Source: an uncultured Clostridia bacterium
GTDB lineage: Bacteria; Bacillota; Clostridia; Oscillospirales; Ruminococcaceae
Direction: 5' to 3'
Length of the DNA: 64,000 nucleotides
Assembly (NCBI GenBank): GCA_947625125.1
Contig: CANQNF010000005.1
Location: 1 to 64,000, forward strand
Positions within the stretch are counted from its first letter, which is position 1, and each line of letters opens with the position of its first letter. The notes under the pieces are model-generated. The model saw only the letters and a program-made list of their open reading frames with translations. It searched no databases and was not told where the DNA came from. Shown piece by piece: positions 6,804 to 21,570 of the stretch. Made by a program: the position numbers and the translations under genes.

Positions 6804-7532
6804 TCAGTGCCTCTCGTCCTCGTCTATAAAGCGTTCGCAGAATCTTGCGGCGAATGCGGGCTCCTCCCCTGCCGCATAGAGATGGGATATGTCCCCGAAG
6901 CTCTGGCACCTAAATATCGCTATCCCCTGCTCGCGCTCCTCGGTTATAAGGGTCGTCACCGACGTAGGAGCGGCGCAGAAATTCTGAGCCAGAATCACGG
7001 GAGAAATGCCGAGGATATGCCCTAAGATCTGACATTCTATGCCGAAATGACAGAAAAACACCACCGTGTCGCGGTTCGGGTCTATCGCCTCGTAATAGCG
7101 GCCGTTTCGCCTGTAGCCGTGCTTTTCCAAAAGCGCGTCGAGGCTGTCGGCGACGATTTTATAGAGTTCGGGGTAGTTTCCCTCGCGCATGAAATCAAGC
7201 TCCTTGAATTTCACGGGGTCGTACAGCTCGTCGACCTTGGTGTAAAAACTCGGCAGGAAATCCCAGCAGATCTCCGGCTCGTCCCGGCCGGGGACCTTGA
7301 CCTTGCAATAGTAAAATTCTCTCAGCCAGTCGCATATCTCGGCCTCTCTGCCCATCTTCTCAAGCGTAGCCTTTGCGGTGTCCTTGGCGCGGCCGAGGGG
7401 CGAGCAGTAAAACGCCTTTACGTCGAGCTTTGATATTCTTTCGGACAAAAGCTCGGCCTCGCGCCAGCCCTTTTCGGTCAGGCTGTCGATGGAATAGTCG
7501 GGGTCGCCGTGGCGGATGATGATGAGTCGCAT
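6804..7532 (-). CDS. Histidine phosphatase family protein
   Basis: A 242-residue member of the phosphoglycerate-mutase-like phosphatases. The phosphate-binding motif RHG lies at MRLIIIRHGDPDYS, and the second catalytic segment is VFFCHFGIECQILGH. The sequence begins at the ATG at 7532, which follows AAAGGAG. Longer in-frame reading to 7655 has no ribosome site and no family similarity. It lies 128 bp downstream of uvrA on the same strand. The substrate cannot be predicted. Confidence 0.85.
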   Translation of the reverse strand: MRLIIIRHGDPDYSIDSLTEKGWREAELLSERISKLDVKAFYCSPLGRAKDTAKATLEKMGREAEICDWLREFYYCKVKVPGRDEPEICWDFLPSFYTKVDELYDPVKFKELDFMREGNYPELYKIVADSLDALLEKHGYRRNGRYYEAIDPNRDTVVFFCHFGIECQILGHILGISPVILAQNFCAAPTSVTTLITEEREQGIAIFRCQSFGDISHLYAAGEEPAFAARFCERFIDEDERH

Positions 7533-7659
7533 AGATGAATTCTCCTTTATGTTTGGGATGGGACAGCAGGCGAGGAGGCGGAGCGAAAGGGGTGGGAGGG
7601 TGGGGCGCAGTCGATTTTTGGTCAGAAGCAGGCAGCGGAGCCTCCGAGCCTGCACGCAG

Positions 7660-10500
7660 TCACTTCTTTTTATATCCGTTCAGTGCGAATTTGAGGTATT
7701 GCCCGGTGAAAGACTTCTCGTTTTTCGAGACTTCCTCGGGCGTGCCGGTGGCGATTATCGTTCCCCCGCGGACTCCCCCCTCGGGCCCGAGGTCGATTAT
7801 ATAATCCGCACACTTTATCACATCAAGGTTATGCTCTATTACAAGAACAGTGTTGCCCGCGTCGGCGAGCTGCTGGAGCATATCTATAAGCTTTGAAACG
7901 TCGTCGGCGTGAAGTCCGGTGGTGGGTTCGTCAAGCACATATATCGTCCTGCCGGTGGCGCGCCTTGACAGCTCGGTCGCAAGCTTCACTCTCTGGGCTT
8001 CGCCGCCTGAAAGGGTCGTGGAGGGCTGTCCGAGTTTGATATACCCGAGGCCAACGTCACGCATCGTCTTTATTTTGCGGTATATTTTCGGCATGTTCTC
8101 AAAGAAAGCGCATGCTTCTTCGACGGTCATGTCAAGAACCTCGGCGATATTCTTACCCTTGTAGCGGACTTCAAGGGTTTCACGGTTGTATCTCTTTCCT
8201 TTGCAGACCTCGCAGGGAACATAAACGTCCGGCAGGAAGTGCATTTCGATTTTTAAAATGCCGTCGCCTGAGCATGCCTCGCACCGGCCGCCTCTTGTGT
8301 TGAACGAAAAGCGCCCGGCGGAATATCCCCTCATTTTCGACTCCTGGGTCATCGCAAAGAGGTTTCTTATGTCGTCGAAAACGCCGGTGTAGGTGGCGGG
8401 ATTCGACCTCGGAGTCCTGCCTATCGGCGACTGGTCGATATTTATTATCTTGTCGAGATTTTCAAGTCCCTCGATTTTTTTGAATTCGCCGGAGACGGTG
8501 TGGGCCCGGTTTAATTTGTTGGCAAGCTCTTTATAGATAATGTGATTAACTAATGAGGACTTGCCGGAACCCGAGACACCGGTCACGCAGGTAAATGTCC
8601 CAAGCGGAATGGAAACGTCGATATTTCTTAAATTATTCTCCTTGGCGCCGATGACTTTTAAGAATTTCCCGGTGCCCTTTCTTCTTTTTTCGGGGACGGG
8701 TATCGAGCGCTTGCCGCTGAGATACTGCCCGGTAATTGAATTTTCGCAGGCCATTATCTCCTCGGGGGTGCCTGCGCAGACTATCTCTCCGCCGTGGATA
8801 CCTGCGCCGGGTCCTACGTCAACGATATAGTCCGCAGAAAGCATTGTTTCTTCGTCATGCTCGACGACAATAAGCGTATTTCCGAGGTCTCTTAAGCGCT
8901 TCAAAGCGTCGATGAGCTTTGCGTTGTCGCGCTGATGAAGTCCTATAGACGGCTCGTCGAGGATGTATAAAACGCCCATCAGCATCGAGCCTATCTGCGT
9001 AGCTAACCTTATTCTCTGGCTCTCGCCGCCCGAAAGAGTCGAGGACGAGCGCGCAAGGGTCAGGTAGTCGAGCCCGACGTTTTTAAGAAAACTCAGGCGT
9101 GACTTTATCTCCTTTAAAATTTGCGCGCCGATAAGCTTTTCACGCTCGGAAAGCTCTAAGCCGTCGACGAATTCGAGGGCTTCGGCTATCGACATTTTCG
9201 TGAAATCGGCGATGTTCTTGCCGCCGACAGTGACTGCAAGGCTCTCTTTTTTGAGCCTGTCGCCGTGGCAGGTGCGGCACTTGACGTCGGACATGTATTC
9301 TTCGATTTTTGCCTTGGTCACGTCGCTGTCGGAGGATTTGTAGCGGCGCTCAAGGTTGTTGATGACCCCCTCGAACGGGGTTATCCAGTATCCCCCGCCC
9401 CACTCGTCGGGACGCTTGAATTTGAGCTTTCGGTCGCCCGTGCCGTAAAGAAAAATATCTATGGCGTCGCGGTCAAGGTCCTTTACGGGAGTGTCGAGGG
9501 AAATGCCGAATTCTTTTGAAATTGCCTCGTAATACATCATCGTCATCGAGCCCGGCTCGACCGTGTTCCAGCCGTCCGCCCTTATCGCGCCCTCGCGAAT
9601 GGTGAGGTCGTCGTTCGGAATGACAAGCCTCTCGTCGACTTTTCTGAATACTCCGAGGCCGGTGCAGTCGGGGCATGCCCCAAAAGGATTATTAAACGAA
9701 AACATTCTCGGCGCAAGCTCTTCGACCGAAACGCCGTGATCTGGGCAGGCGTAGTTCTGTGAGAATAAAAGCTCCTCGCCGTCTATGACGTCAACCCCGA
9801 CAAGCCCGCCCGAAAGCCCGGTCACGGTCTCGACGCTGTCCGAAAGGCGGGAGCGTATATCCGGCTTGATGACAAGGCGGTCGACGACTATCTCGATGTT
9901 GTGCTTCTGGTTTTTGTTCATCGTGATTTTTTCCGAAAGATCGTACGTTATGCCGTCGACGCGTACCCTTGCATAGCCCGATTTACGGGCGTTTTCAAGT
10001 TCTTTCTGGTACTCCCCTTTTCGGCCTCTTACGATGGGAGCCATTAGCTGTATCTTAGTGCCCTCGGGGAGCGCTAAGATCTGGTCGACTATCTGGTCGA
10101 CCGACTGGCGCTCTATGGGCCTGCCGCATATGGGACAGTGCGGAACGCCTATTCTTGCATATAAAAGTCTTAAATAGTCATAAATTTCGGTGACGGTGCC
10201 GACCGTTGAGCGCGGGTTGTTGGAGGTGGTTTTCTGGTCGATCGAGATGGCCGGGGAAAGGCCCTCTATAGAGTCTACGTCGGGCTTGTCCATCTGACCT
10301 AAAAACATTCTTGCATACGATGACAAACTCTCGATATAGCGGCGCTGGCCGTCGGCGAAGATGGTGTCGAACGCAAGGCTTGACTTTCCCGAGCCGGACA
10401 GCCCCGTAAAGACGATAAGCTTGTCTCGCGGGATGGTGAGGCTTATGTTCTTTAAATTGTGCTCTCTGGCGCCCTTTATGACAATTTCGTTTATCGGCAT
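7660..10500 (-). CDS. uvrA: Excinuclease ABC subunit A
   Basis: The damage-recognition ATPase of nucleotide excision repair, which loads UvrB at lesions. The 946 residues have two ABC modules with Walker [15 protein letters not shown] and [13 protein letters not shown] and signature motifs [12 protein letters not shown] and [12 protein letters not shown]. Zinc-binding pairs occur at [15 protein letters not shown] and [16 protein letters not shown]. The length is typical. It begins 12 bp after uvrB, so the two genes form one transcript governed by the uvrB promoter. Confidence 0.98.
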
Positions 10501-15346: not shown

Positions 15347-15460
15347 GGTCTTTGTTCCACAAATGTGGCGATCTTAAACCTCAACCGGCATGACATACCG
15401 ACGGCGCAAGGACGTGCTTTCGGTGGGTCTGCCTTTTATGTTAAGACAGGCGGTGATATT

Positions 15461-16303
15461 TTGTCAAAAAAGCAAAGAAATGTAAGCCTTGCCGTTTTCG
15501 GCGTTCTGATAGTTCTGATACTTGTCGGGATAGTTCTCTGCCCCGGTCAGGAAAAAGAGCCTATCAAGACCGCCATGCGCGACGGGGTCCTGCATGAGAG
15601 CGTCAGGGTCAGCCTGTTCGGGCTGTCGGTGAACCCGGGTCTTATCTCGGCGTTCACGGTCACGGGGCTGATAACGGTCTTTGCAGCCGCGGTCAGGATA
15701 TTCGCAGTGCCGCGGTTCAAGGAAGTCCCCGGAAAATTCCAGCTCGCGCTTGAGACGGCGGTAAAGTATTTCTCGGGGCTTGCAAAGTCAAACAGCCCTC
15801 ACAGAAACGGCTTTTTGGGAGCATATGTGTTCACGGCGGGAGTTTACATAGCGGTGAGCACGGTGTTCGAGCTTCTGGGACTACAGGTCGTCGCGGAAAA
15901 CGGCGCCTCGGCAACGCTCCCGGCTCCCCTTGCGGATATAAACGGCGCTATCGCCATGGGATTTATGTCGTACGGGGTGATACTCGTGAGCGGGATAATC
16001 TACGGCAAAGCCCACGGCGCGATAAACGCCCTGAAAGATTTTTCGCTGCCGATTTCGATGAGCTTCAGGCTTTTCGGCGCGCTTCTTAGCGGAGCGCTTG
16101 TGACCGACCTTGTCTATCACTACCTGCCCCTGAGCTTCGTACTTCCGGCGGTCGTGGCGGTACTCTTTACGCTCCTGCACGCGATAATCCAGACCTACGT
16201 TCTTACAATGCTCGTTTCGGTATTCTACGGAGAGAGCACCGAACCCCATCGCAAAGAGAAAAAACCGAAAATAAAGAAAATAAAAAAATCTGAAAGGATC
16301 TGA
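15461..16303 (+). CDS. atpB: F-type ATP synthase subunit a
   Basis: The membrane stator subunit that carries the ion half-channels facing the c-ring. The conserved Arg is in SFRLFGALLSGALV, and the last helix reads AIIQTYVLTMLVSVFYGES. Five or so membrane helices are visible, and the C-terminal tail is Lys-rich. I chose TTG at 15461 because it follows AGGCGGTG. The frame stays open to 15365, but that start lies about 19 bp after the -10 without a ribosome site. ATG at 15438 is another possibility. The protein is rather divergent from the Bacillus form. Confidence 0.88.
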   Translation: MSKKQRNVSLAVFGVLIVLILVGIVLCPGQEKEPIKTAMRDGVLHESVRVSLFGLSVNPGLISAFTVTGLITVFAAAVRIFAVPRFKEVPGKFQLALETAVKYFSGLAKSNSPHRNGFLGAYVFTAGVYIAVSTVFELLGLQVVAENGASATLPAPLADINGAIAMGFMSYGVILVSGIIYGKAHGAINALKDFSLPISMSFRLFGALLSGALVTDLVYHYLPLSFVLPAVVAVLFTLLHAIIQTYVLTMLVSVFYGESTEPHRKEKKPKIKKIKKSERI

Positions 16304-16653
16304 TGTTTATGAAAATTATGAAATCTGTTATGGCGGCGGTCGTCGCAATTATTCTTATCTTCACGATGACTGCGGCCGTTTTTGCAGAGGCTGCGCAGCC
16401 CGCGGCTGACGGCGCTTCCGAAAACACCGTAAGAGACTACAAGGCTATAGCTGCCGCGGCCATTATCGGTCTTGCAGCGGCGGCAGGAGCAATAGCCATG
16501 GCGATGACGATAATGAAAACCATCGAGGGCATCGCACGCCAGCCCGAGGCAGCTTCAAACATCCGCTCGGCTATGATGCTCGGTCTTGTCTTTATCGAGA
16601 CCGCCATCATCTACGCCCTTATCGTTGCGATACTCGTCGTGTTCGTGCTTTAA
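16303..16653 (+). CDS. atpE: F-type ATP synthase subunit c with signal-peptide-like leader
   Basis: The rotor-ring proteolipid. The mature two-helix hairpin begins at about residue 45 and includes the polar loop EGIARQPEA and the ion-binding Glu in VFIETAIIYAL. Before it lies a hydrophobic leader (about 1-28, ending TAAVFA-EAA) that looks like a signal peptide, making the protein 116 residues instead of about 75-90. In helix 1 the usual GxGxGxG is AGAIAMA, an AxAxAxA pattern. The Glu-Thr...Tyr pattern of helix 2 resembles sodium-type c subunits, but the Gln of helix 1 needed for sodium is Met. Confidence 0.92.
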   Translation: MFMKIMKSVMAAVVAIILIFTMTAAVFAEAAQPAADGASENTVRDYKAIAAAAIIGLAAAAGAIAMAMTIMKTIEGIARQPEAASNIRSAMMLGLVFIETAIIYALIVAILVVFVL

Positions 16654-16671: not shown

Positions 16672-17157
16672 TTGCCGCTTAATATTGATTTTCAGCAGAT
16701 ACTTTTGCATATGCTGAATTTTGTGATACTCTTTGCGGTGCTCTATTTTCTGCTCTATAAGCCTGTGAAGAAATTTATGGACGACCGCGAAGCCGAGTAT
16801 AAAAAAGCCTCAGACGAGGCCGCAATGAAATTAAAAAAGGCCGAGGACGCCCTCGGCAGCCTTGATAACGAGCTTGCTGCCAAGGAAAAGGAAGCTGCCG
16901 AGAAGCGCTCGGCGATGCTGTCCGAGGCTCAGGACCAGTACAACAGGAAGATATCCGACGCCGAGAGAGCTGCCGCAAAAATTTTGGAGGACGCCGGCGT
17001 TCAGGCGGGGGCAATACGCAAAAAGGCGGTCGAACAGAGCGGAGAGGATATTTCTCAGCTCGTAATCGTCTCCGTTAAAAAAGCCGTTCTGAACAGCGAG
17101 GAGGCGTTCGACGCTTTCCTTGACGACGTTGAAAAGGACGCTGAAGATGAGTACTGA
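16672..17157 (+). CDS. atpF: F-type ATP synthase subunit b
   Basis: The peripheral-stalk subunit: one N-terminal membrane helix (about 8-30, ILLHMLNFVILFAVLYFLLY) and a long charged coiled coil to about residue 145. It starts at TTG (16672) after AAAGGGGGCG. The 161 residues are canonical in length with no fused delta domain. Its last 11 bases overlap the start of the alpha gene, so no separate delta gene fits between them. Confidence 0.93.
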   Translation: MPLNIDFQQILLHMLNFVILFAVLYFLLYKPVKKFMDDREAEYKKASDEAAMKLKKAEDALGSLDNELAAKEKEAAEKRSAMLSEAQDQYNRKISDAERAAAKILEDAGVQAGAIRKKAVEQSGEDISQLVIVSVKKAVLNSEEAFDAFLDDVEKDAEDEY

Positions 17158-18872
17158 AAAAATTCTCAGGGCAAAGATATTCTCCTCGGAAAAGCCTGCC
17201 GAGGAGCAGTTTTCAAGGTTTGAAAAATTTATTAAAAAGCACTACGGGGATTCCGCCGTGCTCGAATGGGTGTACGACGAAACGCTCGAGGACGGGTTTC
17301 GGCTCGAAGCGGGCGACGACGTCTATGACTGGAGCCGCGAGGGCAGGTTAAGACAGCTCAGCGAGGTGCTCTCGTCGGTGGACACCGAGGACTCCGAGAG
17401 AGTCATACCCATGCTCAAGGACGCGGTCGGAAAATGGACTCCTAAGGCTCTCCCCGAGGAGATAGGAACAGTCCTCACCGTCGGCGACGGGGTCGCAACC
17501 GTAAGAGGGCTTTCAAAGTGCGAATACGGCGAGATACTTCTTTTCAGCGGCGGCGTGAGAGGGATGGTGCAGTCTATACAGGAGGGAGTTATAGGCTGCA
17601 TGCTCTTTGACGACGACGGAGAGGTATCTTCCGGCAGCAAGGTCAGAAGAACGAAGATGTCGGCCGGGGTGCCTGTCGGCGAGGGATTTATCGGCAGAGT
17701 CACCGACGCGCTCGGCGTGCCGATAGACGGCAAGGGCGAAATAGAGCCCTCCGACCACCGTCCGATAGAAAGCCCAGCTCCCCCGATTGCCGCAAGACAG
17801 CCTGTCAACAAGCCCCTTAAGACCGGGCTTTTGGCGATAGACGCGATGTTTCCTATCGGCAGGGGCCAGAGAGAGCTTATCATCGGCGACCGCCAGACCG
17901 GAAAGACCGCCATCGCCGTGGACGCGATTTTGAATCAAAAAGGCGAGGACGTCATCTGCATATACGTCGCGATAGGCCAGAAAGCGAGCTCGGTAAGACG
18001 GCTCGTCAAGGTGCTTGAGGACGAGGGAGCGATGTCGTACACGACCGTTATACTTGCTTCGGCAAGCGATTCTGCGCCTATGCAGTATATCGCCCCATAC
18101 GTCGGCTGCACCATGGGCGAATATTTCATGAAACAGGGTAAAGACGTTTTGATTATCTACGACGACCTGTCAAAGCACGCCGTCGCCTACCGCTCATTAA
18201 GCCTTGTTCTGGGCCGCAGCCCCGGGCGCGAGGCATACCCGGGAGACGTTTTCTATCTTCATTCGAGACTTTTGGAGCGCTCGGCTCACCTGTCCGCCGA
18301 AAAGGGCGGAGGAAGCATGACGGCGCTTCCGGTGGTCGAAACGCTTGCGGGAAACGTCTCGGCATACATTCCGACTAACATAATCTCAATAACCGACGGC
18401 CAGATTTTTTTGGACACATCCCTGTTCCGCTCGGGACAAAGGCCTGCCGTCAACGTCGGACTTTCGGTCTCGAGAGTCGGCGGCGACGCGATGACCCCAT
18501 GTCTTAAATCAGCGGCGGGAAGCTTAAGGTTAGAGCTTGCGCAGTACCGAGAGATGAAAGTCTTTACGCAATTTTCCAACTACGTCGACGAGGAGATACA
18601 GAAAAATCTTCGGTTCGGCGAGGTGCTGATGAGCATATTAAAACAGGAGCAGTACCGGCCCTATGCCGAATGGGAGCAGGCCGTGATACTTACGGCGGCG
18701 ATTTCCCACTCTCTTGACAGCCTGCCTGAGGAGCATTTCGAGGAGACCCTGCGGGCGATGTGCCGGGGGTTTGAGATGTCCCGGCCGGACGTCATAGAAA
18801 GAATAAAGACCGGCGCCAAGATGTCCGACGAGGACAAAGAGGCAATTGAGGCATACGCAAAGGCGGGAGAAT

Positions 18873-18889
<17 letters not shown>
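17147..18889 (+). CDS. atpA: F-type ATP synthase subunit alpha with N-terminal delta-like domain
   Basis: The 580-residue protein is about 75 residues longer than normal alpha. Residues 105-580 are standard alpha: EIGTVLTVGDGVATVRGL, Walker A GDRQTGKT and the Arg-finger segment LSVSRVGGDA. Residues about 76-104 correspond to the alpha N-terminal helix. Residues about 1-75, ending EDGFRLEAGDDVYDWSREGR, resemble the C-terminal domain of subunit delta (compare the usual IGGFxxxxGDxxIDxSVRxxLxxL pattern), the part that binds subunit b. The start at 17147 overlaps atpF. No independent atpH occurs in the operon, so the fusion probably replaces delta. Confidence 0.92.

Positions 18890-21570
<2,681 letters not shown>

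What the first reader, a model, noticed from the sequence alone, without database searches (positions are those of the whole stretch)
17147..18889. ATP synthase alpha subunit fused to a delta-like stalk-binding domain, with no separate delta gene
The operon runs a, c, b, alpha, gamma, beta, epsilon with overlapping genes, leaving no room for atpH. Alpha is about 75 residues longer than usual, and its extra N-terminus (EDGFRLEAGDDVYDWSREGR region) matches the end of subunit delta, the part that grips subunit b. The delta N-terminal domain, which normally docks on the alpha N-termini, is gone because covalent fusion makes it unnecessary. F1 has three alpha subunits, so a complex would display three b-binding domains instead of one. 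That would allow one to three peripheral stalks, as in V/A-type enzymes. Stoichiometry is inference. The fusion and missing gene are visible.
Basis: partly seen in the sequence, partly recalled or inferred. Interest (0 to 1): 0.9.

Follow-up and report, generated by a model that had tools for sequence, protein, structure and literature searches.

The report
ATP synthase alpha carrying stalk-binding domain
One of the two ATP synthases of this bacterium has the part that grips the outer stalk built into a core subunit present in three copies, the layout that in a 2025 engineered enzyme gave up to three stalks instead of one and let it make ATP at a lower driving force.

Summary
The alpha subunit (17147-18889, 580 aa) begins with the C-terminal, b-binding domain of subunit delta (Pfam OSCP above cut-off; profile-profile 99.3%; predicted fold matches ATP synthase delta-type chains). 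The delta N-terminal domain was not found in the window and the operon has no atpH. But in some relatives the fusion is the only delta-like match, so it can apparently replace delta.

The kind is known: Ueno et al. 2025 (PMC12229609) built this protein in Bacillus PS3, obtained up to three stalks and H+/ATP 5.8, and named Acidaminococcus fermentans as a natural case. PDB 9jc1, that construct, is the best profile match and top fold row here. The window is a new member of a recently recognised kind.

Beyond the papers I could search: the fusion is widespread in the phylum, apparently with several origins, also occurs with a whole delta or two tandem delta domains, and in one clade has become a b-delta-alpha triple fusion that would anchor every alpha in the membrane, often as the only F-ATPase found. 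Stalk number in nature is untested.

The parts
15365..16303 (+). atpB, subunit a (GTG start as listed; a later start is possible)
   Evidence: PF00119 64.8 bits, cut-off 33.9; SMSFRLFG with the conserved Arg read in the translation (role recalled)
16303..16653 (+). atpE, subunit c, 116 aa with a hydrophobic, signal-peptide-like N-terminus (read by eye); ion-site motif M32 / IETAIIY
   Evidence: PF00137 44.3 bits, cut-off 24; motif table
16672..17157 (+). atpF, subunit b, 161 aa (TTG start); overlaps the start of the fused gene by 11 bases
   Evidence: PF00430 49.7 bits, cut-off 28; junctions
17147..18889 (+). fused atpH(C-terminal domain)-atpA, 580 aa
17153..17377 (+). delta C-terminal (b-binding) domain, residues 3-77 of the fused protein
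   Evidence: OSCP profile 99-172; hhalign 99.3%; fold match
17393..17443 (+). retained alpha N-terminal helix and following turn (residues 83-99), between the delta domain and the alpha barrel
   Evidence: helix 83-96 in the model, pLDDT about 69; P99 invariant in 64 sequences
17444..18886 (+). alpha core: barrel, nucleotide-binding and C-terminal domains
   Evidence: PF02874, PF00006, PF00306 all above cut-off
18873..19775 (+). atpG, subunit gamma (start inferred at ATG 18873, overlapping the alpha stop)
   Evidence: PF00231 252 bits; junctions
19772..21160 (+). atpD, subunit beta (start inferred at ATG 19772, overlapping the gamma stop)
   Evidence: TIGR01039 762.5 bits, cut-off 462.85
21157..21570 (+). 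atpC, subunit epsilon with both domains
   Evidence: PF02823 63.1 and PF00401 29.3 bits, both above cut-off

Best explanation
This is a natural delta-deltaN-alpha F-ATP synthase. Each of the three alpha subunits carries its own copy of the delta domain that grips subunit b, and the delta N-terminal domain, which in ordinary enzymes sits on the three-fold axis and limits F1 to one stalk, is lost. F1 therefore shows three equivalent b2 sites and most likely assembles with more than one peripheral stalk, each bringing an a subunit. That would raise ions per ATP and let the enzyme make ATP at a low ion-motive force, or pump more ions per ATP in a fermenter. It works beside a canonical, probably Na+-type, F-ATP synthase of the same genome; the window enzyme is probably H+-type. 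Shown here: the fusion, the missing domain, purifying selection on the delta domain in relatives, relatives where it is the only delta-like match. Inferred: the fusion on all three alphas, the number of stalks and a subunits, the ion ratio, the ion.
Against: I found no structure or stoichiometry of any natural case. The window organism keeps a canonical operon with a full delta, so this enzyme need not be its main one. b and a are single genes in the operon. In the engineered enzyme the share of three-stalk particles was extremely low in cryo-EM, which its authors put down to dissociation on the grid (PMC12229609). Full delta-alpha fusions that keep the N-terminal domain exist in relatives (14 of 160 operons); three such domains cannot all sit on the axis, so fusion alone does not imply many stalks. 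The window gene itself has an internal GTG with a fair duplex energy (-7.8), and internal starts at -5 are somewhat more common than in the control. The relatives with the short fusion as only F-ATPase all also have a V/A-type match (5 of 5 tested). With the window sequence alone, 9jc1 scores only E 1.4.
Confidence: 0.62

Rival explanations
1. Single-stalk enzyme: all three alphas carry the delta domain, but only one b2-a module fits or is available, and the other two domains stay idle or just cap F1. The fusion is a tolerated simplification.
For: Per PMC12229609 all F-type enzymes known before had one a subunit, and few three-stalk particles were seen even in the engineered enzyme. b and a are one gene each. 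Full delta-alpha fusions occur too.
Against: Repeated loss of just the N-terminal domain (10 losses on the tree), the domain said to limit the stalk number (PMC12229609); tandem delta domains in one relative and b fused to every alpha in one clade point towards more b sites being used, not fewer.
Confidence: 0.28
2. Mixed alpha pool: internal initiation or proteolysis makes plain alpha as well, so about one delta domain remains per F1.
For: In the window a GTG near the old alpha start has a duplex energy of -7.8; a weak excess of such starts in short fusions, 48% against 38% at -5.
Against: At -7 the excess is 18% against 16%; full fusions reach -5 in 2 of 14 and triple fusions in 6 of 16; 25 of 118 short fusions have no start codon there. 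Canonical alpha starts reach -5.5 in 12 of 12. Proteolysis was not tested.
Confidence: 0.07
3. Delta of the canonical operon works in trans on the window enzyme, or the two operons form hybrids.
For: Both operons lie in one genome.
Against: The window alpha has its own delta C-terminal domain, constrained in relatives, and relatives without any other delta match keep the same fusion.
Confidence: 0.03

Closest known systems
Engineered delta-deltaN-alpha Bacillus PS3 FoF1 (Ueno et al. 2025, PMC12229609; PDB 9jc1)
   Same: Same design: delta C-terminal domain, short linker, alpha; N-terminal delta domain removed; the 9jc1 chain is also 580 aa.
   Different: Engineered, and lacks the epsilon C-terminal domain; the window enzyme is natural and keeps it. 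Stalk number measured there, unknown here.
Natural delta-alpha fusion of Acidaminococcus fermentans and UniProt G4Q3K6, A0A1I2C5T3 (one passage of PMC12229609)
   Same: Fusion with the N-terminal delta domain missing, as the authors describe it.
   Different: Sequences not seen here, so relation to the window clade not tested; the window genome has a second, canonical operon.
Mycobacterial/Gordonia b-delta fusion (passages of PMC5709465; PDB 8g0c, 7jg5)
   Different: b fused to a whole delta, alpha separate (one copy per enzyme: recalled).
N-ATPase (alternate F1F0)
   Same: Also F-type without a separate delta gene (recalled, and gene order in passages of PMC5709465).
   Different: Gene order differs, and all seven alt_F1F0 models tested fall below their cut-offs.

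Membership tests
F-type ATP synthase | alpha, beta, gamma, epsilon, a, b, c in one operon | tested here: met
   All seven found by Pfam above cut-off
F-type ATP synthase | separate delta subunit with N- and C-terminal domains | tested here: not met
   In this operon only the C-terminal domain, fused to alpha. A full delta exists in the other operon
F-type ATP synthase | catalytic and ion-site residues present | tested here: met
   beta GGAGVGKT and GERSREG, alpha SVSRVGG, a SMSFRLFG, c IETAIIY read in the translations; roles recalled
delta-deltaN-alpha F-ATP synthase (PMC12229609) | delta C-terminal domain joined in frame to the alpha N-terminus | tested here: met
delta-deltaN-alpha F-ATP synthase (PMC12229609) | delta N-terminal domain absent | tested here: met
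   (window ORFs of 40 aa or more)
delta-deltaN-alpha F-ATP synthase (PMC12229609) | more than one peripheral stalk and a subunit | not testable with these tools
   needs the purified complex
delta-deltaN-alpha F-ATP synthase (PMC12229609) | raised H+/ATP ratio | not testable with these tools
   needs reconstitution
N-ATPase (alternate F1F0) | alt_F1F0 subunit models over their cut-offs | tested here: not met
   alpha 599.5 of 750.5, beta 576.6 of 752, gamma 70.9 of 282.35, epsilon 30.4 of 100.1, b 29.5 of 224.7, a 25.7 of 302.1, c 28.7 of 130.85 bits
V/A-type ATPase | V/A-type subunit models over their cut-offs | tested here: not met
   on alpha, TIGR01041 135.3 of 844.65 and PRK04192 85 of 470 bits; no PF01813 match in the genome at E 0.001

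The most novel reading that the evidence does not exclude
Nature has evolved multi-stalk F-ATP synthases repeatedly, and in one clade of the same order has locked the design in: the b-deltaC-alpha triple fusion (735-767 aa) ties every alpha to its own transmembrane helix, so the enzyme, if uncleaved, must have three membrane anchors and, with the separate short b, three peripheral stalks. In five of nine such genomes tested no other rotary ATPase was found. That would be an F-type enzyme with obligate near-three-fold stators and a much larger ion/ATP ratio.
Probability: 0.45. Interest if true: 0.95.

Novelty: new member of a known kind. Interest (0 to 1): 0.78.

Why it matters
One peripheral stalk and one a subunit per F-ATP synthase has been treated as a rule. 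A 2025 engineering paper broke it by design and suggested that nature may have done so too. This window and its relatives supply many natural candidates, including records titled as cultured isolates where the fusion is the only delta match above cut-off, plus relatives in which three b anchors per enzyme are written into the gene. [quoted passage not shown]

Tried and rejected
Delta match as chance or artefact: rejected (over cut-off in a 24,736-model library; same fusion in many genomes). Assembly or frameshift artefact: rejected for the window (stop-free, same join in two same-genus genomes, L034 and L035). One relative, G075 (L036, L094), has gamma and beta split into several frames and may be decaying or misassembled; not mended, left out of the tree. 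Filing by ORF length alone put 6 operons wrongly among the full fusions; the N-terminal-domain model moved five to short and one to tandem. The first internal-start scan was no fair control for canonical genes, because it skipped their first codon; redone, where 'start' means the best of the candidate starts near the expected place.

Sampling: the loci filed were mostly fetched because they match the fusion, so the numbers there (112 short, 20 full, 16 triple, 12 canonical before correction) are no prevalences; at least seven are one contig held twice (judged by equal contig length). The tree used 81 of 160 operons, picked by hand for spread and an intact beta; 13 of the 16 triple fusions are in it. 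Survey counts (69 of 394, 32 of 341, 22 of 398) were made by hand from listed rows. The list is cut off; G332, G840 and G811 were not counted, as the match or frame is partial. So they are lower bounds, and the draws overlap.

Not done: structure of the whole fused alpha, plain Foldseek search, any complex prediction. The signal-peptide-like start of c and the isolate status of named records (titles without 'MAG') are my reading, not tests. Literature searches cover open-licence PMC papers only; absence there is weak. PMC12229609: outline, passages, sections 10 and 13 read; PMC5709465 and PMC6131620: passages only.

Full report
What is there. The window holds a seven-gene F-ATP synthase operon, a-c-b-alpha-gamma-beta-epsilon, with overlapping genes (c and b lie 18 bases apart) and no atpH. 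The alpha gene (17147-18889) starts at an ATG with AAGGA upstream, inside the end of b, and runs 580 codons. Residues 3-75 match positions 99-172 of the 172-position OSCP/delta model at 30.3 bits (cut-off 22.3); the three alpha domains follow. A model of the delta N-terminal domain finds nothing among the window's ORFs of 40 aa or more; the C-terminal-domain model finds the fused ORF (52.7 bits) and, at E 2, one chance ORF.

The genome. It encodes a full enzyme of its own. Its c subunit has E32 and AETTGLY, the window's has M32 and IETAIIY; by the recalled Na+ signature the first is Na+-type and the second H+-type (inference). No V/A-type match (PF01813, E 0.001) was found in G000; RnfC is over its cut-off there and in 18 of the 21 genomes searched.

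Can the fusion replace delta? Of 26 genomes chosen because they matched, a short fusion is the only OSCP match in six (G183, G066, G159, G061, G084, G075), the last with broken gamma and beta; a full delta-alpha fusion is the only one in three (G019, G143, G135); nine with a short and four with a full fusion have a further delta match; four have a separate delta only. Eight of the nine sole-fusion genomes (all but G075) were searched for PF01813 and all eight have it, so there the fused enzyme is the only F-type, not the only rotary ATPase. Among nine named records, the fusion is the only match above cut-off in five: An867 and MH27-2 (titled as isolates) and the MAG records behind L132, L068 and L096. 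FE2018 and An181 (also titled as isolates) and the MAG records behind L087 and L124 have full deltas too. Completeness of these nine is not given.

Distribution. Counting by hand the listed rows where delta domain and alpha share one stop-free frame: 69 of 394 genomes drawn from the order, 32 of 341 from the class, 22 of 398 from the phylum (lower bounds, overlapping draws). Of 161 loci, 160 had an alpha (L107 did not). After testing for the N-terminal delta domain they fall into 117 short fusions like the window's, 14 full delta-alpha fusions, one tandem delta-delta-alpha, 16 triple fusions and 12 canonical operons; this is no unbiased sample.

Evolution. On a tree of alpha core plus beta from 81 hand-picked operons, the 13 triple fusions included form one clade (support 100), the window sits in a large clade of short fusions, and other short fusions lie elsewhere among full and canonical operons; branches with strong support force at least 7 changes for 'short'. 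If a lost N-terminal domain cannot return, it was lost 10 times, the triple clade being one. Holding the 43 short and tandem rows together is rejected (p-AU 2e-57). It is a quick tree with 21 of 78 inner branches open; the exact number is soft, the plural is not. Direction between full fusion and separate genes is open, as one stop codon separates them.

Constraint. dN/dS of the delta domain is 0.02-0.13 in seven of nine short-fusion pairs (window against L034 had saturated dS with dN 0.28; L085 against L095 no nonsynonymous change), 0.16 in the one full pair (its N-terminal domain 0.32) and 0.09 and 0.10 in two triple pairs, whose b part has 0.18 and 0.15. The alpha core is tighter in most pairs (0.03-0.14). 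P17, G50, F51, D61, W62, Q70 and P99 are invariant in 64 sequences.

All three alphas? If plain alpha were also made from an internal start, one delta domain per F1 could be kept. In 118 fused genes (117 short, one tandem) the old alpha-start region holds a start with duplex energy of -5 or better in 57 (48%) against 38% of 740 control windows, and -7 in 18% against 16%; 25 have no start codon there. Full fusions reach -5 in 2 of 14, triple fusions in 6 of 16. Candidate starts of the fused genes reach -5 in 107 of 109; canonical alpha starts reach -5.5 in 12 of 12. A weak excess at -5 remains, and the window itself has one GTG at -7.8, so single cases are not excluded.

Precedent. Ueno et al. 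2025 removed residues 2-104 of PS3 delta and fused the rest to alpha. By gel they found about twice the a and b of the wild type, up to three stalks by cryo-EM (three-stalk particles very few, put down to loss on the grid), and H+/ATP 5.8 against 3.0. They argue that the delta N-terminal domain on the symmetry axis is what limits the stalk number, and state that the Acidaminococcus fermentans operon and two UniProt entries show similar natural fusions (PMC12229609). The window is therefore a new member of that kind, and the best PDB match of its family profile is their construct (E 2.4e-8).

Beyond the precedent. Sixteen operons of the order carry a 735-767-aa open frame with an N-terminal hydrophobic segment (16 of 16 over 1.6 on the Kyte-Doolittle scale; 0 of 118 short or tandem and 0 of 14 full fusions), a b-like stretch (PF00430 28.5-37.9 bits in four tested, cut-off 28; profile-profile 97.3%), the delta C-terminal domain and alpha. 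A separate shorter b (138-152 aa) lies upstream; epsilon, found in 9 of 16, is 83-98 aa, too short for the C-terminal helices. In 13 of 16 genomes, nine of these 13 at least 90% complete, no other OSCP match above cut-off and no other gamma was found; those nine were searched for PF01813 and five lack it. Each alpha would then be tied to the membrane. I found no report of triple or tandem fusions, which search open-licence PMC papers only.

Mechanism and weight. Most likely each F1 offers three b2 sites and assembles with more than one b2-a module, which multiplies ions per ATP. The fusion and domain loss are shown; the stalk number is inferred from the engineered enzyme and from what relatives have done with the same domain. 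A single-stalk enzyme with two idle delta domains is the main rival and only biochemistry can decide.

Noticed in passing
L164-L179 (e.g. L167:7459-9684, L171:7721-9928): Triple fusion b-deltaC-alpha in 16 operons of the order, one clade on the tree (13 tested); sole OSCP match above cut-off and sole gamma in 13 of 16 genomes. Epsilon is short (83-98 aa) in the nine where it was found.
   Followed up: partly
L223 (G289:C17), alpha ORF 7041-9065: Alpha with two tandem delta C-terminal domains (residues 6-72 and 98-167), the only OSCP matches above cut-off in that genome: six b-binding domains per F1 if all are made.
   Followed up: partly
L046, L047, L049-L053, L199, L201, L204, L222, L224-L226: Alpha fused to a whole delta including the N-terminal domain, scattered on the tree; three such domains cannot all sit on the axis, so how these assemble is unclear.
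   Followed up: partly
L003:6340-13348 (G000:C17): Second, canonical F-ATP synthase operon of the same genome with a Na+-like c-ring motif, unlike the H+-like motif of the window operon.
   Followed up: partly
window 16303-16653: Subunit c has a hydrophobic, signal-peptide-like N-terminal extension of about 40 residues; c is longer than 100 aa in 97 of 114 short-fusion operons with a c found.
   Followed up: no
L182 and L168 (G554:C36 and C31): One genome carries both a short fusion operon and a triple fusion operon.
   Followed up: no
L036 / L094 (G075:C22): Operon with an intact fused alpha but gamma and beta split into several frames: decaying or misassembled.
   Followed up: no
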